NCBI GenBank assembly: GCA_001247695.2
Contig: LGRX02033526.1
Location: forward strand, 1-64,000
Length of the DNA: 64,000 bases
Reading direction: 5' to 3'
Source: Cymbomonas tetramitiformis
Taxonomy: Eukaryota > Chlorophyta > Pyramimonadophyceae > Pyramimonadales > Pyramimonadaceae
Part shown: piece after piece, positions 183-64,000 of the stretch
Numbering within the stretch: the first letter of the stretch is position 1
How the letters are laid out: every line of letters starts with the position of its first letter
Translations under genes and position numbers: made by a program
The notes under the pieces: model-generated
What the model was told of the DNA's origin: nothing
What the model saw: only the letters and a program-made list of their open reading frames with translations
Database searches by the model: none

Positions 183-560
183 CTGATGTCTCCCAATCCA
201 TACGCCATCAGCTGGGGGGGGGAATATATTTAAAAAAACCTGCCCTCCAATGCCGCACCCACATCTCAAACCCAAAATCCCTCACAACACCCCACACTCA
301 ACCACAACAGAGATACACCGCCATTTTAGCACCCAGCAATACCCCACGCCCCGCCAGCCCCTACATTGCCGCCCCTTGTTCATAATCGCGACAGCTGTCA
401 CAACAACAACACGCTTAGAAGGGGTCCCTCGGGCACCCCTGAAAGGCCTGTCAGACCCCCCATATTTAGTCACGCTACCGCAGCCCATGTCAGACCCCAC
501 CGCATTTGCCCCCATCGCGCCCGTCTCAGCCGTCAGCAAACGCCCCAACCATGACCCCCT
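183..560 (+). mobile_element. LTR-like end with polypurine tract
   Basis: The sequence cagctggggggggg around 209-222 is followed by an A/T-rich run and a C-rich stretch. The same order (tccc, ccatcagctg-like motif, G-run) occurs at 60920-60957 and 61280-61317. A second shared motif, cataatcgcgacagctgtca, lies at 381-400 here and at 61456-61475. I infer the 3' polypurine tract and LTR of an element of the family at 55-61 kb. No target duplication can be defined because the rest lies outside the window. Confidence 0.55.
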
Positions 561-1029: not shown

Positions 1030-2589
1030 TTACTTTGGCATAAATCTCCTAAACTGGCCGACCATGCCCAAGAATGACCGAAGAGATGACTTGCCATCTT
1101 TAGCCATACGGCGTAGAGGCTGTTTACCAACGGTTGGACCATATGACACTGGAGGCTGGATAGCCATGACTGCACGGATTCTGTCTTCGATGATGGATAG
1201 GCCTGCCTCTGAGATATGGTGTCCGATAAAATCGATGGATCTGACGAACAACTCAACCTTAGAAGGCCTGATGTAGAACTGATGATCTCTGCAGCGCTGT
1301 AAGAACTGTCGAACATGCTTCACGTGGCTGTCAAAATCTGGACTGTACACTATGGTGTCATCCATGAAAATGACCAAGAACTGATCGATGAAGTCAAAGA
1401 ATGCTCGATTTCCAACACGTAGAGCGGTCACAGGAGCGTTAGTTAACCCGAAAGGCATCACTGTCCACTCATATGAACCGTATCTGGTACGTATCGCTGT
1501 TTTGTGAATGTCATCTGGATGTATAAGAATTTGATGGAAGAACTGATCAAATCGGCTAAACCATCGTGCCCCCTTAAGCTGTTCAAGAAGGGTATCGTGA
1601 GGTGGCAATGGATACGTGTCCTTTATAGTGATGTTATTAAGGGCTCGATAACCACAGCACATCCTCCACTTCCCCCCTGGCTTAGGAGCGAAAATGATTG
1701 GACATCCATATGGTGATGATGACGGACGAAGGATACCCAACTCGACATATTTGATGATCTGTCGTTTGAGCTCCTCCATCATAGGCACTGGAATAGTACG
1801 AACTGGCTGTGATGGTGGCTTATGCCCAGGTTCAATGTTGATGCGATGATATCCACCTTCAAACCGTTCTGGCCTATGGCCAGCTGGAATATCCTCCTGG
1901 AAAATATCTGAAAAGTCTTCTCTGATTAGATCACGTGCTGCTGTGACCTTTGGGTCTTCCATAGTGGTGTCTGAGTCTGCTGATGCCATGACCAGTTCAC
2001 CATCGACCTCTGAGAGAAAAAAACGATAAGCTACGGCTTCTTCAGCCGAACCACTGGATCGTATACGTCGTAGGTGCTTCCTCATAGTGGTGGCACTGAC
2101 CAATTCCATTTCAGGAAGGTCATCTGAACCTGGAGTCTGTTCAACTCTGGACAGAACTGTACGAACACTGGAACCTGATGCGTGTTTCCTGGTGATCGTC
2201 ATATTCTCGGACTGGAAGTCAATGTGTGGATTCCTTCTTTCCAACCAATCCTGTCCCAGGATGACTGTGAAGGGTTTCATGTCAATGATATAGAAATCTT
2301 CTGTATCCTTATACTTACCCAGCGTGAATGTAGCATTGGGAAGATAGGATGTACAGGGTAATTGGCTTCCTCCAGCCAATCCCACTGAGAATGATGATGA
2401 GTCTGTTGGTGATATACCAAGCTGAGAAGCGAACTGTCTGTCGATAAAAGACGATGTAGCTCCTGGATCTACCAAAATGTGAGTACTCTGTACATATACT
2501 TTCCCTTTGTACAACAACAGCTTCTTCTGTGATTTCAGCTGTGCTGTCTGAGACCGCATCTGTGCGATGTGTTCTGAGGGAATATCCAT
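1030..2589 (-). pseudogene. gypsy protease-reverse transcriptase, C-terminally cut
   Basis: 519 residues. An aspartic protease comes first: ILVDPGATSSFID near residues 37-49, where proline replaces the usual S/T of D-S/T-G, then VILGQDWL. A Ty3/gypsy reverse transcriptase follows, with SPYGCPIIFAPKPGGKWRM, a YRALN box, TYPLPPHDTLLEQL, and the polymerase FMDD box near residue 410 (VIFMDDTIVYS). It ends at SFLGMVGQFRRFMPK with a stop, after which the RNase H start is still readable in the same frame until a second stop near 980. Irregular residues (CGYRALN for VDYRALN, FDQFFHQI for the usual LxSGYHQI) suggest decay. Catalytic Asp residues are present, but without RNase H and integrase the copy is not autonomous. 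Confidence 0.92.
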
Positions 2590-2678
2590 CTGTTGGAACT
2601 GTAATGTCAGACTGGAAAGGACTTCTTCTGAGATACTCTCAACCCGGCCACTTGCTTCAGTGGCATTTTCAGGCTGAT

Positions 2679-3179
2679 TTATCTTGGGGGTGCCCTCATC
2701 AATGGTACCTGTGCAGTACCCGGAGAGTTTCCCTGAGGAGCTGGAGCTGATGCTGGAGCTGGAACTGGAGCTGCAACTGCTGCATTGATGCTCTGCTGAT
2801 TCTGTAGCTCCTTAACCAGGATGTTGACTGTTTTTACAAGTTTGTTAGACTCATTTTTAGCACCCTGATTATTCTGCTGCTGTTGTCCTCTGTTCTGATT
2901 ATACTGACGAAATCCAGGATTGGGAGCTGGAGGCTTGCCTTGTATGGCATTTCCTTCTGCTGTGGTGGTGGCGAAGCAATCATTTTTGATGTGACCAGGA
3001 CGACCACAACGCTGAGAGACAATTCTGGGGAGGATTTGCTGCTGCTCCTTTTCCTTTTCCTTTTCCTTTCCCCTTGCCTTTTCCTTTGCCTTTTCCTTTA
3101 TTCCTCTGGGAATTCTGGTTGGCATTCTGATTCTGGTTGCCTCGATTCTGATTGGATCTGTCATATGGCTTATTGCCAC
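2679..3179 (-). pseudogene. gag tail with zinc knuckle, shifted frame
   Basis: Only the part after about 3010 is likely coding. It reads CGRPGHIKNDCF, the second half of a CCHC zinc knuckle. The first Cys (PQNC) lies in the upstream gag frame, so the frame change falls inside the knuckle. A Gln/Asn-rich segment follows, then an Ala/Pro-rich linker (PAPASAPAPQG) leading to the protease-RT ORF. This could be a programmed gag-pol shift or an inactivating indel. The 10-nt spacing between the two Cys codons does not fit a clean CX2C, which favours an indel. Confidence 0.6.
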
Positions 3180-4086
3180 GGCCCTTGTCCTTGTCCTTTC
3201 TGACTGGGCCTCCTGACTGTTCCTTCTGTCCCCTATAGTGAAGGGTTTCTGCCTGCTTCGAATGAACTACATAATTCAAATCGAGCAGAACCTGTGTGGT
3301 CTGTGCCCACGACAGGTTATTCCTTTCATCCTCTGTCAGAAATCTGAGATGAAACTGTTTCCGAAGGTCTGATTCCATATTACTGATGAATCTGTCCTTT
3401 ATCAAGGCATCATCCTGATCAACTGATGCTAGAGCAGCCAGTGATGTGAATGTGCGGAGATAATCTGCAAAGGTCTGGTTACCCTGATGCAGTGCCATAA
3501 GGTGCTTTTTGGCAACTGATCTTTTGTGTGGATTACCAAACTGGCTGAGGAATGCATTTCTGATATTTTCATACGTGGCATCTGGCTTTTTGGCCACGAC
3601 CTGAAAATAGTGTCTGTCATTGTTCTGAATGAGTGTGAGGAAGACTGTAATACGATCCTTCTTATCTGGCACACCTGGATAGGTAAACTGAAAGTATCTG
3701 TCTACTGTTTCTATCCAAATCTCAGCATCCTGTCCGATCTTGTATTCCTTAGGTGGATTCATTTTTACCTTTGGAACAAGTGCGGATGGAGCTGGTGCTG
3801 GGGGTAAATGACCATCATCAGGGTCTGTGAATACCGGTGGAGCACGATCCTCTGAATAATCTTCTTCTGGCTCCTGTGGTTCTGTCTCTGGGTCTCTGTA
3901 TCTACTCATGTCGGGTTTCATACGACTGATATTGTCGAAATACCCTATCTCATCAAATCTGGTCTGGGTATCAGCGTAACCAGTAAGCCATTTAGGTATT
4001 TTAAACCGACTGAAGGCATCATATGAGCCTAAGATATCAAAGAACCAAGTAGATGGATCCGGATTAATAGCTGGCACTTCTGCCAT
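2980..4086 (-). CDS. gypsy gag polyprotein
   Basis: 368 residues starting MAEVPAINPDPSTWFFDIL. Residues about 100-230 look like a retrotransposon gag (capsid) domain: WIETVDRYFQF, a hydrophobic helix block, then FLSQFGNPHKRSVAKKHLMA and QTFADYLRTF. The C-terminal part is basic and low-complexity (asparagine/arginine, then KG repeats). The ORF runs out of frame within the zinc-knuckle region, where the next cysteines and histidine are read in another frame. The A/G-rich KGKGK tract at 3050-3105 is a likely slippage or indel site. It lies upstream of the protease-RT ORF of the same element. Confidence 0.88.
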   Translation of the reverse strand: MAEVPAINPDPSTWFFDILGSYDAFSRFKIPKWLTGYADTQTRFDEIGYFDNISRMKPDMSRYRDPETEPQEPEEDYSEDRAPPVFTDPDDGHLPPAPAPSALVPKVKMNPPKEYKIGQDAEIWIETVDRYFQFTYPGVPDKKDRITVFLTLIQNNDRHYFQVVAKKPDATYENIRNAFLSQFGNPHKRSVAKKHLMALHQGNQTFADYLRTFTSLAALASVDQDDALIKDRFISNMESDLRKQFHLRFLTEDERNNLSWAQTTQVLLDLNYVVHSKQAETLHYRGQKEQSGGPVRKDKDKGRGNKPYDRSNQNRGNQNQNANQNSQRNKGKGKGKGKGKGKGKGKGAAANPPQNCLSALWSSWSHQK

Positions 4087-13530: not shown

Positions 13531-14001
13531 CTAGCCACTTTGAAAGCGCCCGGGAGAGCCGGTGCCACTGTCACAGCGCCCAGGAGAGCTGGTACCACTG
13601 CCTGTGAAATCATGCGTAGAGCAAATTGAGAGGATTGGAGATGTGTCGATGTCGCCGCAGGCAGTTGCACCGGGCGCAATCGGTCCTGCCCGGTGTTGGA
13701 TTGAAGAAGAAGAAAGTGCATCCCCGGTCCCACCGCCCCAGGCGGGTGGCTCGTAGTCCGGTGATGGCGGAGCACCGCCCGGTGAGGGCGGCGCAGCAAT
13801 AATTGGGGCTGCCTCAGGCGGCTGCGGGGGGCCCGGGAGCCATGCCCACCCGTACCCGTACGCAGTACGGTACCAGCTGCCGTACCAGCCTGCTGGTTGG
13901 TAGTAGAGATTCGGCGGAATGGCTGTGGGCGTCAGCACACCAGCACCACCGACCTCGCCGCCGGTGCGCCCCGTTGCTGAAGATGCTGGCGCCGGGAGCA
14001 A
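13531..14001 (-). CDS. Overlapping Pro/Gly-rich ORF, uncertain
   Basis: 156 residues in another frame overlapping the last 70 nt of the gag ORF. It is rich in Pro, Gly, Tyr and Ser (NLYYQPAGWYGSWYRTAYG). No domain recognised. It could be the real 3' extension of gag after a frame change or non-coding 3' sequence of the element. Confidence 0.35.
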   Translation of the reverse strand: MLPAPASSATGRTGGEVGGAGVLTPTAIPPNLYYQPAGWYGSWYRTAYGYGWAWLPGPPQPPEAAPIIAAPPSPGGAPPSPDYEPPAWGGGTGDALSSSSIQHRAGPIAPGATACGDIDTSPILSICSTHDFTGSGTSSPGRCDSGTGSPGRFQSG

Positions 14002-15890
14002 TCACGTAAAGGGGCGGCAGTTGCACAAATAACGAACAACAGGCAGACTGCGAGAGATGTGAGGGCAGAGAACCCGAAACCCATCGGCGGTCTGCCGCAT
14101 CCCAAGGGCTGTCTCGGCGGCGGAAGACACTCGCCCTCGTCCTCGGAGTCGTCCGCCGTCACGGAGACGGAGTCCACGGGCGCGACGGGGCCCATGTGGT
14201 GCATAGCAAGCGCTGGCTCCGTTCCCGCGATGTCCAAGTTGAACGCGAACTTGTCCATGAAGGCCGCGTGTGGTTCGTGCGCGTGTAGCGCGCTGATGGG
14301 GTACATCCCCTCGTCGGACACCACCGACTGCGGAGCGGGGGGCGGTGCCGGCGGTGGTGGCGCGTCCAGAGCGTCGTCGCGGACCTCGTCGTGAATCTTG
14401 AAGTTGTGGATGTTCGTAGCATCACCAACCGCGTAAACCCCGAGGTGGGTGTTAGCGGGCTGGCAGTACCCCAGGTACTCGTCGATGGTGTCGGGCACTC
14501 GCTCCTCGGCGACAGCGAAGGAGAACGCGGAGGCGGTGTCGTAGAGATCAGGTTTGCCGTCTGCAATGCAGCAGACGGCGTCGAAACGGACGGCGTCGTC
14601 TTTGTCCACGGCGTTCTGGAACATCACGGCGAGCATGTCGTTCTCGCTGTCCGCAATGCTGAAACCGTGTGCCCCAACACGTCCGCGTGGCCCGCCGTGC
14701 GGGCAGTCACGATGCCAATGCTTCTCCGCCGTAGCGGAGCATGTCGGGTGTCGGCACAACGGGACGAACGTACCGGTGGGCTTGTGGAAAGCCACCTTAC
14801 CCGAAGACTTCCCACGGAAGTTCTGCGGGAAGTTGCCGTGCTCAGGGAGGGGCTTCGCTGCGAAGCGGACGCCGTCACCGTGTCCACCGCGTCCAATGGC
14901 GTTCTTCTTGTCGTTGCGGGGCGTGTAGCCCTTCGTGTCGTCGAGACGGTTGTGGAGCGCCTTGATCTCCTTCTTCATGTCGTAGAGCTGGTCGCGGAGC
15001 TCGCTGAAGACGGTCTTGTAGTCCTCGTCGTCGCTCTGCCCAGCCAGGGTGAGGGCGGAGAACGTGCGCGTAGCAGGCGGGACGTGCGAATCCGTCCCGT
15101 GTTGTGCGTGGCACTCACGGGTCCATTGCTGAATGGTGGCAAGGGACTCCGCCGCACGTTGGTCGTGCAGTAACAGACGGTTGACCACCGGGGCGTAGAA
15201 GACCGGGTCGAGGGACTTGATGAAAAGGGACTTGACCTCCATGTCGTCGAGAGTGCTCTTCCGTCGAGCGGACCGGAGAGCGGCGTTGGAGGCGGCGATT
15301 GCCCGCGACGGGTCGAACTGGTTGATCTTGATGGCCAGAAGGTCCGCGGTGCCCTGGAAGGGCCCGCCCGAATCCAGGAGCATCCTGGCGATCTCCAGCA
15401 ACACCCGCTTCCCATCAAACGGGTGTGCCTCCGCTGAAGACTCCATCCAGTCTGCCGCGGGCGACACCGGAGCGATGATGAATTCCAGTGTCGAAAACAG
15501 CAGTTTGTTCGCCTCGGCGCGAACGGGCAACGCGGCATCCTCCAGGTCGAACAGAGAAGAAAACGCGGACTCCTCAGTGACGAAAATGTCCCGTAATGCC
15601 AGTACCAGACGGGCGAAAACGGAGCTGACGTTCGACTCCGTACCGTCAAAACGGCCATGTTTGTCGTCGTACACCTTCTTGATGACGAGTTTAGCGGCAC
15701 GCTCGTCGAAGGATTCTTTTGCTAGACGCTTGACAGCGTCGAGGAACAGTGCCCCTGCTGACTGGGCAGCCGGGGCAGCCGTAACCGTAGGGGTGGCCGG
15801 AGTGGTCGCATGTCGAGCTGCGGCATCGTCGAAAATTGTAACTAGTGAGCGGCGTGCGGCCGCGGTGTGAGATCTCGTATAAGTACCCAT
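13932..15890 (-). CDS. gag-like protein of non-autonomous LTR element
   Basis: 652 residues starting MGTYTRSHTAAARRSLVTIF. Residues about 40-280 are helical and gag-like, including VKSLFIKSLDPVFYAPVVNR; the same LDPVFYA motif occurs in the ORF at 62.3-64 kb. A coiled-coil-like stretch follows (FSELRDQLYDMKKEIKALHN), then a basic segment and a Cys/His cluster (CRHPTC, HWHRDCPHGG) that could bind zinc like a nucleocapsid knuckle. The C-terminus is acidic and proline-rich and ends with a hydrophobic segment (FSALTSLAVCLLFVICATAA) resembling a membrane anchor. The ORF is intact, is the only sizeable product of the element, and reads away from the right-hand LTR. Confidence 0.85.
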   Translation of the reverse strand: MGTYTRSHTAAARRSLVTIFDDAAARHATTPATPTVTAAPAAQSAGALFLDAVKRLAKESFDERAAKLVIKKVYDDKHGRFDGTESNVSSVFARLVLALRDIFVTEESAFSSLFDLEDAALPVRAEANKLLFSTLEFIIAPVSPAADWMESSAEAHPFDGKRVLLEIARMLLDSGGPFQGTADLLAIKINQFDPSRAIAASNAALRSARRKSTLDDMEVKSLFIKSLDPVFYAPVVNRLLLHDQRAAESLATIQQWTRECHAQHGTDSHVPPATRTFSALTLAGQSDDEDYKTVFSELRDQLYDMKKEIKALHNRLDDTKGYTPRNDKKNAIGRGGHGDGVRFAAKPLPEHGNFPQNFRGKSSGKVAFHKPTGTFVPLCRHPTCSATAEKHWHRDCPHGGPRGRVGAHGFSIADSENDMLAVMFQNAVDKDDAVRFDAVCCIADGKPDLYDTASAFSFAVAEERVPDTIDEYLGYCQPANTHLGVYAVGDATNIHNFKIHDEVRDDALDAPPPPAPPPAPQSVVSDEGMYPISALHAHEPHAAFMDKFAFNLDIAGTEPALAMHHMGPVAPVDSVSVTADDSEDEGECLPPPRQPLGCGRPPMGFGFSALTSLAVCLLFVICATAAPLRDCSRRQHLQQRGAPAARSVVLVC

Positions 15891-16281
15891 AGTGAAATGA
15901 CTGCAGAGATAGGGTGAGGTAGAAAATGCGAGGCGAGACCAACGGCGTGGGCGACGGCTAGCGAGTTGCGGCGGGTCGTCGAGGATAATCAGGGAAACAG
16001 CAAATTGTGCGCGGTCGTGTGGGACGAAAGGACGTGATCAATGTCGTACGGTGTACCGGAGACCAGAAACAACAAAATCCAGCCCAACGATACTTCACGG
16101 AAAATAAACTGTCGTCAACGCTACCCAATCATGTCCAATCAACCGCGTGTCCGTAACTGAGCCATACCGCCCGTACCGAAAGTCTCTCTAACGCGGGTCC
16201 CTCACCCCATCTCAAGCGCCGGTGTTTAGCCAATCATGGCCAAAGTCGCAGTGTAAAATTAAGCGTGCGTGGTACCAAACC

Positions 16282-53010: not shown

Positions 53011-53905
53011 CAAGGCATGGTATCGAAACGTTTCGACCTTATCGATAGTTTTCGATAAGTTTCGAATGAGTATCGATCGATATGAATACGTACGATGTCA
53101 ATATCAATCGATATGAATAAGTACTGTGTGAATATCAATCGATATGAATAAGTACGATGCCAATATCAATCGATATGAATACGTGCAATGTTGATATCGA
53201 TCAATATGAATAAGTGCACATTATTTCCCACTTATCGATGTATTGATATATCAATATGACCTGAGTGCACACAACATTGCAAGCAAGTACACACGGCAAT
53301 GAGAAAATAATAATGAATTAGACCATACAATGCTATCTAGAACTCTACTGTGTTAAGGCATGCCATCATGGAATGCTCAATTGTGCCTTCGGTAAGGCCT
53401 TTCCTTAAGTCACACTAACGCCTAAACGGACTTCTGGCATGTTCTTGCGTGCACGTTGGCCCTGTCTGCGAGCACGACCCATGGTGGATGGAGTTGGTCT
53501 GCTGGATGAAATTTAATGTGACGGTGCGGTTGCGGCTCATATATTATGGCCCCCCTATGATGCTAGGCGGTACGTATACCGGGATCTGAATATGATGTGT
53601 TTTCGACCAACATAAATCCCATATTTGGGCAATCTAAGATCGATTAATCGATCTGAGTATCGATTAATCGATATGGCCAATCGCGGTACTTTAATTTTGT
53701 ATGATCGATCGATATGAATAAGTGACCTGGAGGTATCAATCGATATGAATAAGTCCCCAAGGGGTATTCGATCAATATGAATAAGTGGTCCAAGGGTATC
53801 AATCAATATTCAATATTTCGATATGTACCAAATTCATATCAATAAATAAGAATTAATCGACATATTGATAGTATCGAAAATATTGAATATCGATACCATG
53901 CCTTG
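53011..53905. mobile_element. Non-autonomous hAT-like element
   Basis: A perfect 16-bp terminal inverted repeat, CAAGGCATGGTATCGA, occupies 53011-53026 and, as its complement, 53890-53905. The flanks ttccgaac at 53003-53010 and 53906-53913 form a perfect 8-bp target duplication. Eight-base duplications and CAAGG-type termini are typical of hAT transposons. There is no transposase. The interior carries two arrays of atcaatcgatatgaataagt. Confidence 0.93.
53060..53215. repeat. atcgatatgaataagt array inside hAT-like element
   Basis: Four to five units of about 37-39 bp containing atcaatcgatatgaataagt. A second array with the same core lies at 53700-53800, near the other end of the element. Confidence 0.88.
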
Positions 53906-54091: not shown

Positions 54092-54544
54092 TATAAGCAA
54101 AATTCCAGTCATAGTGGTAGAATCGGCCTTTTTTTGGTAAATTCTAAGAACACATCTAACGCCATGACGTTTGAAGCTGAAACTTTTGGATGAAACGCCC
54201 ACCCAATGAATGGCACTTGCTTTTTAGGGTACTACATGATGCACGCACGTTAGATTTGGCGATGATATTGTTTAAGGAGCACATATGAGGCATCCCCATC
54301 GATGCACCCAAGGGACGTACCCAAAAATATCGACTTTTCATTTTCGTTCCGGCGGCATACGGCGGTAGCCGGCGTTTGAGTACACGTGATCAAATAGCCG
54401 GCATGCGCGCATCCGCTTATGAGGAATCGGTTTAGGGTATTGTCAAGACATTTGCCCAAGACGGGCGTGCTCCACTTCCAAGCGGACTTCACCCGCATCA
54501 TGGTGGAGCGGGTTTGCGACGGGCGGCTGGACCCGATTCTTAAT

Positions 54545-54923
54545 TAACGTATCGGACCAAGCGCATGCGGCTGCGGCCTTCAAGGAGGAAGTCCTGGCCT
54601 GCAGCGACGATTACGACGTTCGTGATGTGGGCAGGCGCCTCAGGAACATGATTTGCGATTTTCGATTTTTTTGGAGGTATGGGGTGTATACCTGTGTGTC
54701 GGGGAGGGACACCGAAAAGGGAAAGTGGGTTTGGCACGCCTCCCGGACCGCCCACCCATACTACCGCAAGCACTCCGACGCCATTCGGGCGTTGGTCATT
54801 GAGACCGACGCCCGATCCAAGTACCCATCGCACGAGCAAAAAAAGGCAGCGTTGCTCAGCATCGACGGGTTGGTGCTGCACGAGCTGCCCGCCCAGGCCT
54901 TGGACGGTGAGGCGAAGGATGAG
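54545..54923 (+). pseudogene. Unrecognised coding-like segment
   Basis: One open stretch reads AHAAAAFKEEVLACSDDYDV, RRLRNMICDFRFFWRYGVYT, TAHPYYRKHSDAIRALVIET and SIDGLVLHELPAQALDGEAK, ending at a possible donor gag|gtgggt (54924). A shorter stretch upstream in another frame (ADFTRIMVERVCDGRLDPIL, about 54481-54540) probably belongs with it. No family recognised. It lies next to repeats and may be a transposon remnant. Confidence 0.4.
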
Positions 54924-55300
54924 GTGGGTACGTTAATTAGCTTAATTAATTTCTGTTTCGCCTGTTTTGTTGTCTCACCAAGAAGACGTCACCAGGACAC
55001 CTCAGAGACGTTCTGAGGGTATTCTGCACCTCTTCCTTAGTTAATAGGGCTTAGCTAGTAGGCAAGTATGACTGAGTGTCTTCTGAGTGTCTTCTGAGTG
55101 TCTTCTGAGTGTCTTCTGGTATAACATACTAACATACGCCTGTTGTCCACTACCCGGCCTTGGGTACATCACGATGTACCCAATGTATGCAGATTTTCCC
55201 GTGTCATTTGTGCACCGATCGCGTCCCCCGCGGTTTCCCCCACCGCCTCCGCTCCCCTCCCCATCCCTTGCTACGAGCCACTTGATGAAGTTTTGGATGA

Positions 55301-56413
55301 AGGGACATCCTGGACCCCGGCCGCACGGAGCAAGACGCCGCAGACGACACCGCCTCCGGTCACTACCCCTGCAACGTGCGTGGAGAGCCCATGAGGGCGT
55401 GGCCCACCATGATGTCCTTCCCCGACTCTTACCAGTTCAGGGACGGCAGGAAGGGCACAGTCTGGGACCACGCCACACAGCAGTGGGGCCCTCCCACGCC
55501 CGAGGAGAAGGAACGCGCTATGGGGTTCCAGACCGGCGCCACTCAAGGACCTGGCATCTCGGCGCGCGAACGAGGAGAGATGCTGGGCAGAGCCTTCGAC
55601 GTCCGATGCGTGTCCCGCTTTCTGGCCGTGTGCTACCTGCTCAACAGAGCAGAAGCCCCGCGGGTACGAGTCGAGTCAAGACACTCCATCGCCGAACATG
55701 TCACGCCCAGGGTCGCCACCTACCACAGTGACAGGAGAGAGGAGCTCCCCGTGGACCCGCCAGAAGCCGTCGTGACCCAGTGGGCCGCGATGCTCAACGC
55801 CATCAAGCGGGCGGCACGGTTGGAGGCGTCCGAGCTACGGCAGCTGTATGGGCCAGGCGCCACTGCCTCACTGATAGGAGCCGCATATCAGGCACCTCCA
55901 GAGTGTAGCGGTCAGCGGCCCCACGACAAAACCGGGCTAGGCGCTACGCCAAACGAGGACGCACCCACAATGCACGACATGCCCACTTCCCTTAACACTC
56001 CCATACAGTTCGTGCCCGCCAGTGGCCCCGCACCCGCGTTCCACGCAAGCGCTCAGAGCCAAGACCGCGCCCCTCACCACAGCATCCCCAGCGAGAAGGT
56101 CGCCCGGGCCCTCAGCGCTGCAATCGGGTCGCGCGAGGCGATCGAACCCTACGACGACGAGGCAATGCTGCGCTGGCTGAAAGACGAGCGCCACGGCGAC
56201 CCCGCCCTTCATCCGGCTGCCAGCGCACGAGCACGGCACTACGCGCTCGAGGGGGAGACCTTGATCCGCATCCTGCCCAACGGGGCAAGGCGACCGGTGC
56301 CGCCAGTGGACCAGCGCCGCCGCATCGTTCAGCAAATGCACGAAAGGTGCGGGCACTTTGGCCGCCGACGCACCGCAGCCATGGTAAGAGACGCGTTCTA
56401 CTGGCCCAAGCTA
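55301..56413 (+). pseudogene. C5-DNA methyltransferase tail fused to integrase finger
   Basis: In frame from a stop at 55298: LDPGRTEQ, NVRGEPMRAWPTMMSFPDSY, then PTPEEKERAMGFQTG and ERGEMLGRAFDV. This matches the end of cytosine-5 methyltransferases (the E-E/R-MGF segment of motif IX and the R-x-LGxA-x-V segment of motif X). The catalytic PC and ENV motifs lie upstream of the preserved part and are missing. A linker of about 200 residues leads to WLKDERHGDP, then HERCGHFGRRRTAAMVRDAF-YWPKL, the histidine half of a retroviral-type HHCC zinc finger. The frame stops at 56414, exactly where a MITE is inserted, and continues at 56757. Confidence 0.75.
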
Positions 56414-56754
56414 CAGTAATCACTCACCCTTTAAGAAAACCCGGCGCATGCTGGAAAACAGCCAGCTTTTTGGGGGTGGTACCGAAGTTGTCGAGAAAAG
56501 CTGGCTGGTTGTTTTGAGCTATGGAATCCTCGAAAATAAGAAATATGGGTGCTGGCGCCGCAGGCGGAAAATTTTGAAAATGTCGCCTTTTTAAGTGTTT
56601 ATCATTGGACTTTTAAGAGAATTGCTGGCTGATTGAAAGAAAATACTTGCTAATTCTTACCGATTCCATAGGGCGCTGGCGCTGGCGGATACGCAAGTTG
56701 GTGGAATTAGCTGGCTGACCCCGTCTCGGTTTTCTTAAAGGTGAGTGATTACTG
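56414..56754. mobile_element. Tc1/mariner-like MITE in the integrase
   Basis: 341 bp with 26-27-bp inverted repeats starting CAGTAATCACTCACC (one base extra at the left) and flanked by TA on both sides (56412-56413 and 56755-56756). TA duplication and CAGT termini are typical of Tc1/mariner non-autonomous elements. Removing the element plus one TA brings the HH and CC halves of the integrase zinc finger into one frame, showing it inserted into an intact coding sequence. No coding capacity. Confidence 0.95.
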
Positions 56755-56756
56755 TA

Positions 56757-57506
56757 CACGACACATGCACCGACGCCGTGAGCAAGTGCGACGCCTGTGC
56801 CCGTTACCGCGCCAACTTCGACAAGCACGCCCCCCACCTGAACCCACTGGAGGTCAAAGGCATGTATTATCGATTCTCCACCGATCTGGCGAAAATGCCG
56901 CGCAAAGCCAAAAACAACTACCAGTATGTCATGGTGATCGTGGAGCACTTCACCAAATACGCCTGCCTCATCCCACTTCACACCAAAGAGCCAGCGGAGA
57001 CCGCCCAGGCATTCGCCCTCCACGTAATCGCCAGGTTCGGGTGCCCAGCGGAGGTGGTGAACGACAACGGCGGCGAGTGGGAGAAGGATTTCGCACAGCT
57101 GCTCAGGGACAATCTGATCGACCACCGCACCACTATGGCGGCCAGCTACCTCGAGCGCGCCGAGTACGTCAAGAGGGCCACCATCATGGCCGGCAGCAAC
57201 ATCGCCATAGCCCAGCGCCGCCAAACCGAGCGATACGCACAAGTGCGCTCAGGAAAGTACCTGCCCAAGCAGTTCAACTTCCGCGTGGGCGACTTCGTGT
57301 TCCTGAAGCGCAGCGCGAATCACGGCCTGCAGCTCCACACACGAGACCCCATACTTCAAATCAAGGAGCTGCCAAACGATAGCACCGCCGTACTGCAGGG
57401 CCGATGCGGCAGCACGTCAAGGTATGTTTTACGCAAGGTCGACTTTACACAAAACGTGCTCACAATACGTGCAACGTACACTGCTCGCAGATGGCTACTA
57501 TCCCGC
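56757..57506 (+). pseudogene. gypsy integrase core
   Basis: Begins HDTCTDAVSKCDACARYRAN (the Cys pair of the HHCC finger). The core then shows the first catalytic Asp in YRFSTDLAKMP, a strand YVMVIVEHFTKYACLIPL, and the second Asp in VVNDNGGEWEKDF. The expected PQxNGxxER segment with catalytic Glu is replaced by SYLERAEYVKRA. About six or seven residues are missing, so the Asp-Glu spacing is about 30 instead of 35 and the enzyme should be inactive. An SH3-like tail follows (FNFRVGDFVFLKR, DPILQIKEL). The frame is lost at the next insertion near 57509. Confidence 0.9.
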
Positions 57507-57508
57507 AG

Positions 57509-58549
57509 TCCTTGTGGGAGGACCAGATTTGAATGTGGTCCTCCCACAAGGACCTATTTTCAAATAATTTAATTGGGCATGCCAACCAAAATTGGAGGTG
57601 CGTCCAATGAAAGGTGGTCTATACAGGGTCTATACTTAGTTAGATGATGCCTGGTTTGGCCTGGATCCACCTCATATATCTACACCGATTGCATTTGTAT
57701 ATGCATCCCTCGGATTTTTCAAGTCAGAATTTTTCTAATGTTAAAAATCACTCAAAACAACACCTTATCTTCAATATTTCTTTGCTGATAGTATATGTAG
57801 GCTGAGCATGCGTCCAAGGATTCAGCAACACCGTAGCATTGTGTACAATCATGTTTACAATAGAACACACGTTGATAACCTCACACTGGACATATATTTG
57901 CACTCAACTCGACATGTCCTATCATTTTTTGTCAAATATCAGAAAATCTAAGGATTAATTTGGCTCTGATGTGATGTCGTGCATGCTAGATTGAGTGCGT
58001 GCATGGCACTTCCACACCAACCTCTCGCTACGGTCGGCATATTATAGACACACTACTTGAATTTTTTAGCCATCTACATGGCCATAATGTGCAATACTTT
58101 GGCGTGCATGCATCGTTGAAGTGGAAGAAAGACAATTTCATTTTGGGAGATTTAAGGCATTTTCAGTTTTGACACCCGGTGCTTCTTCAACCGATATTGT
58201 GAGGGTCAAGATGACCTCGGATGAAAGTTTTGACAAGACACTGCAGAAGGAGCAGCTCGAGATCTTGACAACATGGGTGCTCAAATTTTCAAAGGACCTT
58301 CGAGGAGGCAGTTAGCTTGAGTAATAGCCTGGTCCTTGTGGGAGGACCAAGGTGTAGTTCGTGATTTTTGTGAAATCACATCCCCAAATCACACCCGCTA
58401 AACATGACCCTAAAGTCACTCTAGGGACGAACCCGTGCAAATGATATTCAATTGACAAATCAATATCATGAAAAAATGCTTGAATATGCTTTAACGGGCA
58501 AGCTAGCGACCAATATAGCCATTGCGAAGTGGTCCTTGTGGGAGGACTA
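57509..58549. mobile_element. Insertion bounded by tccttgtgggaggacca repeats
   Basis: The 17-mer tccttgtgggaggacca occurs at 57509-57525 (plus), 57536-57552 (inverted), 58333-58349 (plus) and, in a slightly changed form, from 58533. The first pair forms a perfect hairpin, and 57536 with 58333 gives inverted termini enclosing about 810 bp. The polyprotein reading is lost at the first copy and resumes after the last (CHLPDINPTITYN from about 58582). This looks like one or more nested non-autonomous elements. No target duplication could be fixed. Confidence 0.65.
58170..58315 (+). repeat. Dispersed repeat related to 53914-54091
   Basis: About 130 bp aligning with 53960-54090. Here it sits inside the insertion bounded by tccttgtgggaggacca repeats, so the repeat family travels with or was captured by such elements. 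Confidence 0.75.
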
Positions 58550-58581
58550 GCAATTTGGATAATAGCCACAGATAGTCATTT

Positions 58582-59463
58582 GCCATTTGCCCGACATCAA
58601 CCCCACCATCACCTACAACCTGGATGTCAACGAAGACGCGCGGTGTCAAGTATGCAAAAAGCCGATCGCCCCGCCAGCATCCTTCTTTGCGACGACTGCA
58701 ACCAGGGCTATCACCTGGCGTGCCTGCAGCCCAAGCTGACGCGAGTCCCTACTGAAGAGTTCTGGTACTGCCCCCGGTGCCTAGGCCTGTTGCCCGACGA
58801 CGACCTCTCCCCACAATACCTCACTGCCTATGAAAACAGGGGCAAACAGCTGGACGGAAAGCGCGCCTTGAAGGTCATCGATGGGATACCTTACGAGGGC
58901 ACCATACGGTGGCTAGGAGCCGCAGAGAGGCCATACGCGCTAAAGTGCGAGTACGATGATGGGGACACAGAAACCTTCACTTTGGCAGAGCTGCAGCAGT
59001 ACCTGTTACCGGACAACGCGACAGCCCCGCAAAAGCAAGCGGTGGCCCAGCCCCAACTGGAGGCAGAGCGCGCGCTGCACACTGCTTTAGCTACCATCCC
59101 CGACAACATGCCCAACGCGGCGGCCACACCCACACCGTTTGACAGCCTACCCGACACCTGGGACCTCGGCGACAGACAGCAGAGCATGCTGCGCGCAACG
59201 GCCACCCTCCTGCCGGGGCACTGGGACCCCGCCCACGTCACCAAGCTCAAGCAGCACATACGCCAGCAGGCCCAGGAGCTCCTAGACGCAGCCGCTACCA
59301 ACGCCAGCACCATCAGACACCGCCACCCGATCATGACTGACGCGGAGTGCCAGCGCGTCAGCGCCAAACAGTGGGGCACGCAACTGGTGGTCACCACCCC
59401 TTCCGAAATCGAGCAGTTGGCAACACACATCACCTGGCATCCCGCCCGCGGACAGGGTATGTG
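58582..59463 (+). pseudogene. PHD finger and Tudor-like module of gypsy polyprotein
   Basis: CHLPDINPTITYN leads to a C4HC3 PHD finger: CQVC (58644 on, one frame), then CDDCNQGYHLACL, then FWYCPRC in another frame. A one-base deletion-type shift near 58670 splits the finger. PHD fingers read histone H3 tails. About 40 residues on, KVIDGIPYEGTIRWLG and YALKCEYDDGDTETFTLAEL give a Tudor-like barrel signature (DG-Y-G-I ... Y-DGD-E ... T-EL). The rest is helical and ends near EIEQLATHITWHPA, where the frame shifts into the next domain. In chromoviruses a chromodomain often sits after the integrase; here a PHD-Tudor pair takes that place. Confidence 0.8.
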
Positions 59464-59918
59464 ACCCCTACGCTGGCACTGGCGCCATCGAAGCAGCCCT
59501 GCACCCACACAAAGTGTACACACACTCCTCAGACATCAACCCCGCCATGGCCACCAGTACCCCAGTTGACGCATTACAGCCCAGCAACGTCAGACGCATG
59601 ACCAGCTACAACGTCGTCGTCACCAGCCCCTCCTTCAGAGTACTGGACATCGCCCTACCACTGCTGACGGTGGAAAGAGAACTGACATGCGCCCAACCGC
59701 CCATGTACCCTTACTTACACAACGTGTTCGACGCACACCCAGCCAGACGAAGCTGGTTGTGGAGACTGGCCACCGCACAACGCATGAGCATCTTGCTCTG
59801 CAAGCAGAAGGGTCCACTCGGCAGACGCAACGTGTGGCTGATCATAGCCGACATCGCCACCACCACGCTGCAACGTAGGCTCAAGCCGCAAGCAGCAGCG
59901 TGCGCCATGGCCTTCTGA
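59436..59918 (+). pseudogene. Second methyltransferase-like domain
   Basis: Continuing after a frame change: RVCDPYAGTGAIEAAL, then THSSDINP, then YNVVVTSPSF, then LGRRNVWLIIA and a stop at 59916. DPYAGTG fits motif I of S-adenosylmethionine-dependent Rossmann methyltransferases. SDINP supplies the acidic residue at the end of strand 2. TSPSF sits where amino-methyltransferases carry a (D/N/S/T)PP(Y/F) motif IV, with Ser replacing the second Pro. It is separate from the cytosine-5 enzyme upstream. The target (DNA, RNA or protein) cannot be told from sequence. It closes the polyprotein; the 3' repeats follow. Confidence 0.6.
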
Positions 59919-60100
59919 CAGCAACCCACCACCTCCCTAACCGCACGGAAATTCCTCTACGTCAGGCGCCTAACAAGCCTGAGCCCCATTTATCCCAAGA
60001 CCTCCACCCCGCATCACCCCCCACCCCAACGCAACGCTCCCCAGTGACCCTAACGCAACATTGCCCGCAACCCCAACACAACACGCTCAAAAAAATAAAA

Positions 60101-60818: not shown

Positions 60819-61570
60819 TACGAGATCAACGCGCCACCGGAAGCACTCGGACCAACGACTACGAGACAGACACGCCCGCCACCAAAAGCACTCAAACCAT
60901 CAACTACGAGACCATCTGACGACTCCCCACCCAGTGCGCCCTCAGCTGGGGGGGGGACGTTCCCCAAAGCAAAAATTTTCCTTCCTCAACAAGTCCCGCC
61001 GCCCACTATCTCCGCCGCCCCGCACACCCGCAGCCCAAACATCCCACTCCAGTTCTCACCCGCGCACCCAAGGCGCACCACTCCCCACAACGCAGCCCAC
61101 AGTCCCCCACCCGCCGTTTACAAGGACCAACGCGCCCACCACCACAGACACCCAGACCACCCGCCACGAAATCATCACGTTCACATCCACGCCCCGACCA
61201 CCGCCACCACCCTCTCTTCCCCGCTCGCCCGCATACCACGCCGCAACGCACATACCCCACCCTCCCTGTCATAACCAGCTGAAAGCTCCCCATCCAGTAC
61301 GCCCTCAGCTGGGGGGGATATAACTAAAAGAATTTCCCTCTCAACAAACCTCGCAACCCAGCATCGCTGCCCCGCACACCCGAAGTCCAAACAGCCCATC
61401 CACTTCTCACCCGCGCACCCGCAGCACGCTACCCGCCAGGACACAGCGCGCGGTGCATAATCGCGACAGCTGTCACAACTACGAACGCCCCAGACACAGG
61501 GGGGTAGGGGGTAGGGGTCCCCCTGCCGCCCACGACGGGGTCTCCCCTCTGTCCCCACTCAGTCATGCCC
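60819..61570 (+). mobile_element. Tandem LTR-like repeats with polypurine tracts
   Basis: Two copies of tccccayccagtrcgccctcagctg plus G-run (60923-60956 and 61287-61317) are each followed by an A/T-rich run, ctcaacaa and a C-rich stretch with ccccgcacacccg and tctcacccgcgcacc. The second copy also holds cataatcgcgacagctgtca (61456), shared with 381 at the left end of the window. I read these as two LTR-type units, possibly a nested or tandem insertion. Boundaries are approximate. Confidence 0.5.
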
Positions 61571-61594: not shown

Positions 61595-62337
61595 TATTTT
61601 CCTCACTCTGTGGCACCCACTTTCCCCACTCAGTTATTACCATCTTTCCCCACTCTGTTACACCCACCTTCCCCACTCAGTTATTGCTGAAATCTGTATA
61701 GGCAGCCCTGACTGGGAGTCCCGGTCAGGCCCCTATGACAGATCCCTAGGACCAACACTGGACTGTTGACTGATCTGTAGGTTCGTACTGTGACACACGC
61801 TGTGTCACAGGTAGGCTAGACTCCGAGACCGTCCGAGACCGTTCCGGGTATATCTAGCTTAGGGTTTATTTATCTTATACAGTTTATCCACACGAGTACG
61901 GGACTTTCTGATATCTAGTGTACTTGGATATTCCGGTAGGTCGTGGCCCCATCCACGTTTTCATTCCACTTGCTATCTTGGCCATGATTGGCTAAGCAGC
62001 CGCTTGAAGAGGTGGTGCGCACTTGCGCGTTTGGGTGCGACTAGGATTTGGACATGATTTTACGGTAGACGTCTTTTGCGGCTGCGAGTCATGGGCACCG
62101 CGCGTTGCTATTGCTCGGTTGTGGCAATGTTCATTTGCGTTGTTCTGCCTGCACTGATCCCGCTGGTTTACGTATTTTGGGCTGGTGCTCCGGACGCCTT
62201 CGACCACATCGACATTTGCAAGTGCCCCACGCTCTTTTCGCCGCTCCGCACGTTCTGCCGTTACGTCATCCCTCCATTTCCGCCACAACACCCAAACGTG
62301 CTACCGCGCATCATCTTTTCTCTGGCTTTCAGAAGAA
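61595..62337 (+). other. Possible LTR and leader of the right-hand gag element
   Basis: Three ttccccactc-type repeats lie at 61618-61685. TGCTGAAATC at 61685 resembles the TGCTGAATAT start of the 13-16 kb LTRs, and a tttatcttatacag TATA-like region lies near 61869. No second copy lies in the window, so the LTR call is tentative. An alternative in-frame start for the following gag at 62076 would add a hydrophobic N-terminus. Confidence 0.35.
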
Positions 62338-64000
62338 TGGCGACATCTACACGAGCTCGTAAACGCCTATTGAAGGACTCCGACTTGGACGCCTCTATAC
62401 GGCTTATAGATGCGGTTCGGGACACCCCAACCGCTAGCACCCCGCCTGTGGTGCCCCCTAATCCTTCCAGCAACTCCGACGCCGCTGTCGCGTTGCGGAA
62501 GCATCTCGTTGACCAACACGCTGCGGTCGACGTGGTCTACAAGGGGAGACTACATCGGGCTTGGGCCAAGGGTATCCGCGAGGATATCCTTGGTTCCAAG
62601 AAACATCATTATCGTGGTACCGACGACACCGACCGCCTCTCCGAGTTGGTGGTGCAGCTTCGGACCGAGTTTGAGTCCGCTGGACTGGACTTGACCCCCT
62701 TTGACCTCGACGACCCCACCTCTTTGGTTATCGAGAAGGTTAATGGACTGCTCTATGACGTCTTGGCCCTCGTCGTGGAGCGCAACTCTGTGGCCGACAC
62801 CTGGCTTCGGGGTACGGACTCTTCGGCTGACCGAGATGGACGTCGTGCCCTCGTCGACATCATCAAGGGGAGCGTGCCGACAGGTCCTTCGCGAGAGCCA
62901 CCAGCAGGAGCATGCGGCGCTTCGTTATCCCGCAGGCGTTGACCCGCAGCCGATCTTGGCTCGTGAGCAACGTCTGGTGCGGGATAACCGCGCTCCTGAC
63001 TGGCAGCCCACCGACGAGACCCGTAAGTTGTCCCTCTACAACCGCCTCGACCCCGTGTTCTACGCGGCGGTGAAGGTGCGGTACCCGCTTGCGGGTGACC
63101 TTAGCGGGGTCACTCTCCGCTCGCTCCAGGCGCTTGTCGTGGCCATCTTTCAGGCCTGGGCGCAGTCGGATGATGGGGCGGCAGTGCGTGAGAAGCAGAC
63201 ACTGGGGGCGGGCGGTAAGCCCTCCGCCCTTGTCACGTCTTCTGAGTACGCGGTCCTTCTCGACGAGATCGCCGCCTTGAAGGCGCTTGTGCAGGGCAAT
63301 CGTGCGGGCGCGGCTCAGCGGCAGCAGCAGCCGCAGCCGCGCGGTAAGCAGCATCCGCGAGGCCATCGAGTGGGTGTGCACCCGGCACCGTCTGTGGGGT
63401 TCGACAGGGACAGCATGAAGGCCAAGCCCCTTTGCCACCGTTGCCGCAAGGCGGGCAAAGGGGACGCCTATCACGCGTACCGCGACTGCCCTCTTGGTGG
63501 GCGCCAGCATTCGTCGGCCACGGCAGCGGCCTTCTGCATTCCTATTGAGGAGGAGGATGCGGAGGGTCTTCACACCCTGGCACTTGTGCAGGTTTTCCAG
63601 GAGGCTGCGGATGATGGACCGGAGGCCTTCGCCCGTGCGGCTTCGGCTTATGGTCCCCCCGCTGTGCTTTCCGCGGGCGGGATTGGCGGCATCGACGTGT
63701 CGGCCTACGGATTCAGCGTACCGCCTCCGCCTTCTGGCGGGACCGACGACGAGGACATCTTGCGGCGGCTTGATGCCCTCACCTCTGAGGTTCAGGCCGC
63801 CCAAGAAAAGGTACATTACACTCACGCATCCTTTGTTCCTGGGAGTGCGGTTGAGGAGCATGCATCGGCTCTGGTGTGTGGCCCTGCCGCTGCGGCGGGA
63901 ATCACACCGGAGGGGCAGGTTCCGGCAGGTGGTGCGGCGGCATCGGCATCCGCCGTGCCGGCCCCTGCTATGCCTGTTTCGCAGGTAGAGGATGTACAGC
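62338..64000 (+). CDS. gag-like protein, frame change, runs off window
   Basis: Starts MATSTRARKRLLKDSDL and is open to about 62880 (ending RRALVDIIKGSVP). The protein continues in the +1 frame (QVLRESHQQEHAALRYPAGV) and stays open to the end of the window. It shares with the 13.9-15.9 kb gag the order of a helical domain, LYNRLDPVFYAAVKVRY (LDPVFYA in both), a basic Gln/Arg region and a Cys/His cluster (CHRCRKAG, YHAYRDCPLGG). The two are therefore gag proteins of one superfamily. The shift could be an indel or a programmed event. No pol domain is reached before the window ends. Confidence 0.75.

What the first reader, a model, noticed from the sequence alone, without database searches (positions are those of the whole stretch)
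55301..59918. Retrotransposon encoding a chromatin-modifying cassette
One plus-strand gypsy-like polyprotein remnant carries five chromatin- or DNA-related modules in order: a cytosine-5 methyltransferase C-terminus (ERAMGF, MLGRAFDV), an integrase, a C4HC3 PHD finger, a Tudor-like DG-Y-G...DGD module, and a second Rossmann methyltransferase-like domain (DPYAGTG, TSPSF). An element that can write methylation, read histone marks and integrate could set its own chromatin state or target site. Cytosine methyltransferases captured by retrotransposons are established in the literature; the combination with PHD, Tudor and a second methyltransferase is the part worth checking for novelty.
Basis: partly seen in the sequence, partly recalled or inferred. 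Interest (0 to 1): 0.88.

Follow-up and report, generated by a model that had tools for sequence, protein, structure and literature searches.

The report
Alga retrotransposon with chromatin-modifying toolkit
This is a broken copy of a 22-kilobase Ty3/gypsy-type retrotransposon from a green alga (likely Cymbomonas) whose intact copies carry, in one protein, a predicted DNA cytosine methyltransferase, an integrase, a PHD finger, a Tudor-like domain and a second methyltransferase-like domain, so it would likely mark its own DNA and read host chromatin when it inserts.

Summary
The window copy is dead: cut off inside the C5 methyltransferase (C5-MTase), hit by two insertions, with a 267-bp integrase deletion and frame breaks. 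Intact relatives in the same 852-Mb genome (inferred Cymbomonas tetramitiformis) settle the anatomy. 23 of 67 scored copies have a 2208-2209-aa open frame. The one read through runs RT - RNase H - DNMT3/DRM-like C5-MTase - H2C2/DDE integrase - PHD - Tudor-like - second MTase-like domain. In open copies every module shows purifying selection (median dN/dS: C5 0.10, PHD 0.00, Tudor 0.02, MTase-like 0.12; linkers 0.22-0.31).

A DNMT3 inside a gypsy Pol with DIRS-like repeats is already published (KnitGypsy-Dnmt3, Klebsormidium, PMC5890265). New here are a prasinophyte host and the PHD-Tudor-MTase-like extension. The second 'methyltransferase' passes no curated cut-off and its motif IV lacks the second proline, so catalysis is open; no footprint of self-methylation was found.

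The terminal repeats are split (A1-internal-B1-A2-B2). The B|A joint GACA-GC-TGTC did not vary, while the A|B joint carries 0-4 extra bases. This suggests integration of a two-LTR circle by a DDE integrase.

The parts
55301..55655 (+). C-terminal part of a DNMT3/DRM-like C5 cytosine methyltransferase (target-recognition region to motif X, RGEMLGRAFDV); the catalytic half is missing here
   Evidence: DRM2 E 0.008; intact relatives carry motif I VIELCAGLCSG, IV GTECQDLS, VI IECV, VIII RAHRLRNYW; profile of relatives hits only DNA methyltransferases (DNMT3, DRM) at E < 0.2
55656..56302 (+). Linker between C5 domain and integrase (median dN/dS 0.25 in open copies)
56303..56412 (+). Integrase H2C2 zinc-binding domain, broken at its 3' end
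   Evidence: PF17921 E 3.2e-9
56413..56757 (.). Inserted short DNA transposon (terminal inverted repeats CAGTAATCACTCACC.../...GGTGAGTGATTACTG, TA on both sides; Tc1/mariner-like by recall)
   Evidence: sequence; gap in alignment to copy C2295
56758..57415 (+). DDE integrase core and C-terminal part, with 267 bp missing at 57134/57135
   Evidence: PF00665 E 4.1e-10; alignment to C2295
57416..58568 (.). Inserted DNA not aligned to the element, with several CCTTGTGGGAGGACC-type repeats
   Evidence: gap in alignment to C2295; sequence
58644..58783 (+). PHD finger (C4HC3), frame broken between its first and second cysteine pairs
   Evidence: PF00628 E 1.3e-9; frames; UHRF2 PHD E 5.3e-11 for the intact copy
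58856..59011 (+). Tudor-like module (PTM/DIR17-like), best Pfam E 9e-5 in a relative, below cut-off; borders approximate
59012..59359 (+). Linker with conserved 'LMPGPW/LLPGHW' (median dN/dS 0.31)
59360..59918 (+). Second methyltransferase-like domain (motif I DPYAGTG, TSPSF, DAHPARR, KGPLGRRN.W), frame break at 59443-59445
60948..60956 (+). Polypurine tract (G9), first of two; the second lies in 61236-61335
   Evidence: the same tract lies directly before B in the intact copies
61236..61468 (+). Second polypurine tract and repeat part B1, ending CATAATCGCGACA
   Evidence: pieces aligned to C2295 23766-23862 and 24006-24054; B-end found at 61468
61465..61474 (.). Palindromic B1|A2 junction GACAGCTGTC (predicted integrase attachment site)
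   Evidence: 369 exact copies of the 26-mer CATAATCGCGACAGCTGTCACAACTA in the genome, 0 in the reversed control
61471..61481 (+). Start of terminal repeat part A2 (TGTCACAACTA...); its further course and 3' end were not aligned in the window

Best explanation
The window holds a dead copy of a 21.7-kb Ty3/gypsy-type retrotransposon whose intact copies fuse a DNMT3/DRM-like predicted C5 methyltransferase, a DDE integrase, a PHD finger, a Tudor-like module and a second methyltransferase-like domain in one selected polyprotein, and which would likely methylate its own cDNA and use the PHD-Tudor part to steer insertion into chromatin. Shown: the domain order, the open frames in many copies, purifying selection on every module, and split terminal repeats A1-[PBS position-internal-PPT]-B1-A2-B2 with ends TGTC...GACA. 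Inferred steps: (1) reverse transcription from the PBS just after A1 and the polypurine tract just before B makes a linear cDNA with B-A repeats; (2) its ends are joined to a circle with two repeats, leaving the variable A|B joint; (3) the integrase cuts the palindrome GACA-GC-TGTC at one B|A boundary and inserts the opened circle, which gives the split repeats; (4) the PHD-Tudor tail behind the integrase binds histone H3 tails, in the role that a chromodomain has in chromoviruses; (5) the C5 domain methylates the cDNA or the insertion site, so that the new copy looks like host DNA or is kept in a tolerated chromatin state; (6) the second MTase-like domain binds S-adenosylmethionine and modifies, or merely binds, nucleic acid or protein.
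For: Intact polyprotein: RVT_1 E 1.1e-18, RT_RNaseH 1.9e-28, H2C2 6.6e-15, rve 1.2e-10, PHD 2.1e-10 in one frame; Ty3 RT-RH E 1.2e-70, foamy virus integrase E 1.3e-20, UHRF2 PHD E 5.3e-11. C5: of 36 PDB sequences matched by the profile at E <= 1, 33 are named DNMT3 or DRM2, 2 'DNA methyltransferase' (4onj, best, E 2.9e-6, and 4onq; DRM by recall) and 1 is unrelated (eIF4G, E 0.78); motif strings I, VI, VIII and X are identical in 9 of 9 open loci, IV differs in one residue outside its core in 2. Selection: median dN/dS RT/RH 0.05, C5 0.10, integrase 0.03, linkers 0.22 and 0.25 (the 9 of 30 loci that are open throughout); PHD 0.00, Tudor 0.02, MTase-like 0.12, linker 0.31 (12 copies). Ends: B1-GC-A2-B2 in 6 of 6 copies where that stretch was fetched, B2 ending in GCGACA before flank in 5 of these 6 and in 2 more; A1 start directly after flank in 4 left ends; the 60-base flanks are unrelated (ungapped identity at most 0.30 among 4 left, 0.35 among 7 right). 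A2|B2 joint read in 7 copies with 0, 0, 0, 1, 1, 2, 4 extra bases, two of them with G as in the polypurine tract, and one copy using the upstream duplicate of the tract; B1|A2 joint unchanged in 6 of 6 and in the window copy. A1 is followed by TGATTTTGAAA in 3 of 3. A1/A2 identity 98.15% over 2653 aligned bases, 176 gap columns apart (C2295), and 99.26% over 2570 (C2904). PDB matches of the PHD include complexes titled with unmodified H3 (5hh7, 3t6r, 3zvy, 4q6f, 5t8r).
Confidence: 0.6

Rival explanations
1. The second methyltransferase-like domain is not a catalytic enzyme but a degenerate S-adenosylmethionine-fold module used as a binding or structural part of the polyprotein.
For: Motif IV is SPxF-like with x = W, R, S, A, I or C, without the second proline of (D/N/S)PP(Y/F/W) enzymes (motif by recall); no curated family cut-off reached and no PDB sequence match.
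Against: A motif-I-like [DEN]-P-[YWFC] (glycine kept in 15 of 16), an invariant Asp at the motif II position and an invariant Ser of SP are kept among 16 aligned sequences, many at 25-43% identity; dN/dS 0.12.
Confidence: 0.45
2. The split repeats are made as in DIRS/PAT elements, by a tyrosine recombinase supplied in trans by another element, and the DDE integrase is used differently.
For: The repeat order A-internal-B-A-B is the DIRS order given in PMC5890265, which notes the same repeat structure for KnitGypsy-Dnmt3.
Against: No tyrosine recombinase family in the two long frames of the copy read (other frames not scanned); ends TGTC...GACA and a 4-bp repeat GGGG in C2904 fit a DDE integrase; integrase median dN/dS is the lowest of the segments in that set, 0.03.
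Confidence: 0.2
3. It is a Ginger-type DNA transposon (gypsy-like integrase with PHD finger; by recall), not a retroelement.
For: The window alone shows integrase and PHD but no reverse transcriptase within the element.
Against: Intact copies encode Ty3-like RT and RNase H in the same frame, and have a polypurine tract and terminal repeats.
Confidence: 0.01
4. The accessory domains are chance passengers picked up once and now decaying.
For: Many copies are broken: 44 of 67 scored places lie in a shorter open frame, contig ends included.
Against: 23 of 67 places have the full 2208-2209-aa frame; the modules are under purifying selection; a Tudor-linker-MTase-like protein with the same order exists in an unnamed JGI sequence (P0030 vs P0006, E 1e-35).
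Confidence: 0.03

Closest known systems
KnitGypsy-Dnmt3 of Klebsormidium nitens (de Mendoza et al. 2018, PMC5890265; sections 9 and 11 and passages read)
   Same: Gypsy-type Pol with a DNMT3-related domain under purifying selection (Ka/Ks < 0.2 there, about 0.10 here), and, by the legend of its Fig. 4, DIRS-like repeat structure with gypsy domain composition.
   Different: A prasinophyte (Chlorophyta) host instead of a charophyte. The words PHD, Tudor, chlorophyte and prasinophyte do not occur in that main text, so PHD-Tudor-MTase-like is not described there; its figure and supplements could not be seen and its sequence was not compared.
SymbioDIRS-Dnmt3 of Symbiodinium (same paper, passages read)
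   Same: DNMT3 in the Pol polyprotein and A-coding-B-A-B repeats.
   Different: Tyrosine recombinase instead of a DDE integrase; DIRS-type RT.
Chromoviruses (Ty3/gypsy with a chromodomain behind the integrase; recalled, and noted for Cymbomonas in PMC10675990, passages read)
   Same: A histone-reading module behind the integrase core of a Ty3-like Pol.
   Different: PHD plus Tudor-like instead of a chromodomain, followed by an MTase-like domain; 3-kb split repeats.
Retrotransposons with Dam-like or Dcm-like methylases (PMC5890265 and PMC6338049, passages read; the latter says Ty3/Gypsy and DIRS elements with DAM or DCM occur in green algae among others)
   Same: A methyltransferase in a retrotransposon, in green algae too.
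   Different: PHD and Tudor are not mentioned in PMC6338049; Dam-type domains belong to another family.
DNMT3/DRM C5 methyltransferases
   Same: Profile matches these; motif order I-IV-VI-VIII-X not rearranged.
   Different: TECQ for PCQ/PCN and ECV for ENV.

Membership tests
Ty3/gypsy (Metaviridae-type) LTR retrotransposon | Ty3-like RT and RNase H upstream of a DDE integrase in one Pol | tested here: met
   RVT_1, RT_RNaseH, H2C2, rve in order; Ty3 E 1.2e-70
Ty3/gypsy (Metaviridae-type) LTR retrotransposon | Two complete direct LTRs flanking the internal region | tested here: not met
   A1 at the left, B1-A2-B2 at the right; A1 is followed by TGATTTTGAAA, not by B, in 3 of 3
Ty3/gypsy (Metaviridae-type) LTR retrotransposon | 4-6 bp target-site duplication | tested here: inconclusive
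   GGGG in C2904, none in C2295
DIRS/PAT (YR) retrotransposon | Split direct repeats A1-internal-B1-A2-B2 | tested here: met
   right side in 6 of 6 copies, left side in 4; both sides in one copy: C2295, C2904
DIRS/PAT (YR) retrotransposon | Tyrosine recombinase instead of DDE integrase | tested here: not met
   rve/H2C2 present; no recombinase family in the two long frames scanned
KnitGypsy-Dnmt3-like elements | DNMT3-type domain in a gypsy Pol with DIRS-like repeats | tested here: met
   description in PMC5890265
KnitGypsy-Dnmt3-like elements | Common descent with the Klebsormidium element | not tested
   no Klebsormidium sequence was fetched
C5 cytosine methyltransferase (DNMT3/DRM clade) | Motifs I, IV, VI, VIII, X in order with catalytic Cys and Glu | tested here: met
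   VIELCAGLCSG, TECQ, IECV, RAHRLRNYW, RGEMLGRAFDV in 9 of 9 open loci
C5 cytosine methyltransferase (DNMT3/DRM clade) | Canonical PC and ENV residues | tested here: not met
   TEC and ECV in 9 of 9 open loci
PHD finger | C4HC3 zinc ligands | tested here: met
   PF00628 above cut-off in window and in P0003, P0004, P0007 and the intact copy
Tudor domain (PTM/DIR17-like) | Profile score above cut-off | tested here: not met
N6A/N4C amino-methyltransferase | Motif IV (D/N/S)PP(Y/F/W) | tested here: not met
   SPxF-like in relatives; only sub-threshold profile matches
Chromovirus | Chromodomain at the integrase C-terminus | tested here: not met
   Pfam at E <= 0.1 finds PHD, no chromodomain, behind the integrase
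Ginger DNA transposon | No reverse transcriptase | tested here: not met
   RT and RNase H present

The most novel reading that the evidence does not exclude
A gypsy-type DDE integrase inserts a two-LTR circle rather than a linear cDNA: it opens the circle at a palindromic attachment site inside the repeat (GACA-GC-TGTC), which explains the DIRS-like split repeats of DNMT-carrying gypsy elements, while the same polyprotein reads H3 tails through PHD-Tudor and modifies DNA with a C5 methyltransferase and possibly a second, new type of methyltransferase. The element would thus carry a complete write-and-read chromatin system to its insertion site.
Probability: 0.35. Interest if true: 0.88.

Novelty: new variant of a known kind. 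Interest (0 to 1): 0.72.

Why it matters
Captured DNMTs in retrotransposons were reported in 2018, with their role called unclear (PMC5890265, section 11). Here a family in one alga keeps a C5 domain together with a histone-reading tail and a second MTase-like domain under selection; the repeat junction occurs at 369 places exactly, though these were not all checked for the cassette. The question 'what does a transposon want with a methyltransferase?' can thus be tested in one alga by nanopore methylation calls and insertion-site chromatin maps. The repeat joints also give a sequence-level argument for integration of circular cDNA, an idea set aside for retroviruses (by recall), in elements with a DDE integrase.

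Tried and rejected
Ginger DNA transposon: considered because the window shows integrase plus PHD without RT; dropped when intact copies with RT were found. A first reading of the repeats as ordinary B-A LTRs with a truncated 5' LTR was dropped when further right ends showed the same B1-A2-B2 order with different flanks. A split of the copies into two subfamilies (alignment extents 61-405 and 61-313) was dropped: fetched copies of both sets are nearly identical in the 3' modules. A first dN/dS run used only 4 loci because loci on the minus strand had not been turned; one search replaces it.

Literature: 20 of 21 listed; 12 of 21 listed; 10 of 33 listed. One search returned no paper; among the listed titles none is on a PHD- or Tudor-bearing DNMT retrotransposon. 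The 8 papers on split direct repeats were seen as listings only. PMC10675990 and PMC6338049: passages. PMC5890265: passages plus sections 9 and 11. The library lacks most subscription papers, so absence there is weak.


Full report
Source. The nearest named proteins to the window's element are from Cymbomonas tetramitiformis. The window's own assembly (G000, 851.7 Mb, 25,745 contigs) has contigs of the same lengths as those listed for two of these proteins (23,710 bases for P0015 and C20795; 64,912 for P0008 and C23350). I therefore take the window to be Cymbomonas, a prasinophyte green alga.

What the window holds. The coding part from 55,300 to 59,935 is collinear with an intact copy elsewhere in the genome (C2295) at 81-91% DNA identity, and further pieces match up to 61,481. 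In order: the last third of a C5 methyltransferase, a linker, the integrase zinc domain, a short transposon insertion with inverted termini, the integrase core with a 267-bp gap, a second insertion, PHD finger, Tudor-like module, linker, second MTase-like domain, two polypurine tracts, repeat part B1 and the start of repeat part A2. The copy is dead.

Intact copies. A search of G000 with a relative (P0014) scored 67 places with the C5 domain; by hand count 23 of them lie in an open frame of 2208 or 2209 aa (the tool says such counts are lower bounds). In copy C2295 the frame reads RT - RNase H - C5-MTase - H2C2 - rve - PHD - Tudor-like - MTase-like. By sequence the RT-RNase H is closest in the PDB to Ty3 (E 1.2e-70), the integrase to prototype foamy virus (E 1.3e-20), and the PHD to UHRF2 (E 5.3e-11). 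Upstream, in the same frame and behind one TGA codon, lies a second long frame, contig bases 9573-16553, with a weak aspartyl protease (E 0.012), three cysteine-rich repeats and stretches that look like membrane segments by eye.

The C5 domain. The window's frame matches DRM2 weakly (E 0.008). A profile of seven relatives hits 36 PDB sequences at E <= 1: 33 named DNMT3 or DRM2, 2 named DNA methyltransferase (DRM by recall; best E 2.9e-6) and 1 unrelated. Motifs I, VI, VIII and X are identical in the 9 loci of 30 that are open throughout, and IV differs in one residue outside the core in 2. Two substitutions are odd: TECQ where other enzymes have PCQ/PCN, and ECV where they have ENV (canonical forms by recall). 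The catalytic Cys and Glu stay.

The PHD-Tudor-MTase-like tail. Among 14 copies read over it, 12 are open; 12 of the 14 had been chosen for their long frame, so this is no frequency. The PHD passes Pfam's cut-off, and its PDB matches include entries titled as complexes with unmodified H3 and some with H3K4me3. The Tudor module matches PTM/DIR17 Tudor below the cut-off (best E 9e-5 for P0004). The last domain has motif I (DPYAGTG), then SD-I-N-P, DALQP, TSPxF, DAHPARR and KGPLGRRN.W. A profile search found 19 proteins: 3 close ones (58-65% identity, one named Cymbomonas) and 16 from unnamed ENA, JGI and other sequences at 26-41% identity (environmental by inference). Across 16 aligned sequences the Ser of SP is invariant and the Pro nearly so, but the residue after it is W, R, S, A, I or C. 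One of the unnamed proteins has Tudor-like, linker and MTase-like parts in the same order (P0030 against P0006, E 1e-35), so the pair Tudor-MTase-like is likely older than this family. I call the domain methyltransferase-like and leave catalysis open.

Selection. With pairwise Nei-Gojobori counts on open copies (a choice that favours young copies, with pairs not independent), median dN/dS is 0.05 for RT/RNase H, 0.10 for C5, 0.03 for integrase and 0.22 and 0.25 for the two linkers (9 loci; 32-35 pairs with dS > 0.02 per segment), and 0.00 for PHD, 0.02 for Tudor, 0.12 for MTase-like and 0.31 for their linker (12 copies; 49-64 pairs). The linkers serve as built-in controls: the accessory modules are held by selection nearly as firmly as the replication enzymes.

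The repeats. In C2295 the element runs from 5,325 to 27,065. A 2.65-kb repeat A1 opens it (TGTCACAACTA...), followed directly by TGATTTTGAAA (PBS position; not compared with tRNAs). At the other end a G9 tract is followed by B1, the dinucleotide GC, A2 and B2 (...ATAATCGCGACA). Six of six copies whose right side was fetched show B1-GC-A2-B2; B2 ends exactly at GCGACA in five of them and in two more copies, and four left ends start at A1; the flanks are unrelated. This is the split-repeat order of DIRS/PAT elements, but with a DDE integrase. Two joints behave differently. B1|A2 (GACA-GC-TGTC) is the same in all six and in the window copy (61465-61474), and the 26-mer around it occurs exactly at 369 places in the genome with none in the reversed control. 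A2|B2 reads TTCCAT|ATATATAC with 0, 0, 0, 1, 1, 2 and 4 extra bases in seven copies, in two of them with G as in the polypurine tract, and in C22734 B2 begins at an upstream duplicate of the tract. A joint that varies at the polypurine and PBS ends is what end-joined cDNA would give; a joint that does not vary and equals the chromosomal ends is what an integrase site would give. Hence the model of an inserted two-LTR circle. It is an inference: only two copies were read at both ends, and only C2904 of them has a target duplication (GGGG).

Does the element mark itself? The genome gives no clear sign. CpG observed/expected in C2295 is 0.91 in the coding part read and 0.99 in A2, and the window copy has CpG transition rates close to those of other sites (0.110 against 0.082 and 0.090; 0.051 against 0.060 and 0.058). 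Methylation without much deamination remains possible; direct base calling is needed.

What is known. De Mendoza et al. 2018 (PMC5890265; sections 9 and 11 and passages read) described DNMT3 in the Pol of a gypsy element of Klebsormidium with Ka/Ks < 0.2, whose repeats are 'the same as that of a DIRS retrotransposon', and named cDNA methylation as one possible role for DNMT-carrying DIRS elements. The present family fits that description in another division of green plants and adds PHD, Tudor-like and MTase-like modules; PHD and Tudor do not occur in that paper's main text. Whether the two are one lineage was not tested. PMC6338049 (passages) states that Dam- and Dcm-encoding Ty3/Gypsy and DIRS elements occur in green algae among others. 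A survey of the Cymbomonas assembly mentions chromodomain gypsy elements, and the word methyltransferase does not occur in its main text (PMC10675990, passages).

Verdict. The C5-in-gypsy part is known; the chromatin-reading and second MTase-like parts are a new variant; the repeat joints add a testable mechanism. Functions are predicted, none measured.

Noticed in passing
window 379-414 (+): A second copy of the palindromic junction (CATAATCGCGACAGC|TGTCACAACAACA) from a more diverged relative lies at the left edge of the window; 179-235 also matches the repeat region.
   Followed up: partly
window 1030-2811 (-) and 2980-4086 (-): Another retroelement with protease and RT in one frame (RVT_1 E 7.2e-29, RVP_2 E 3.4e-10) and, upstream of it, a gag-like frame (by eye).
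   Followed up: partly
window 62058-63999 (+) and 13932-16037 (-): Long frames that look gag-like by eye (zinc-knuckle-like Cys/His spacing); no Pfam match of weight.
   Followed up: no
L033/L031 (C2295:9573-16553): ORF1 of the intact copy is over 2300 aa and, between a weak protease and the RT frame, has repeated Cys motifs and hydrophobic stretches that look like membrane segments; an envelope-like role is possible.
   Followed up: partly
G000:C4246:14633-20336: Three exact B|A junctions at a regular spacing of 2839 bases, i.e. tandem terminal repeats, as circles with several LTRs could leave.
   Followed up: no
window 53040-53220: Tandem 31-base repeats of TATCAATCGATATGAATA type, also scattered at 53.7 kb.
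   Followed up: no
window 54423-54930 (+): A frame of about 170 aa shortly upstream of the broken element, without Pfam match and without match to the relatives' proteins or the intact copy.
   Followed up: no
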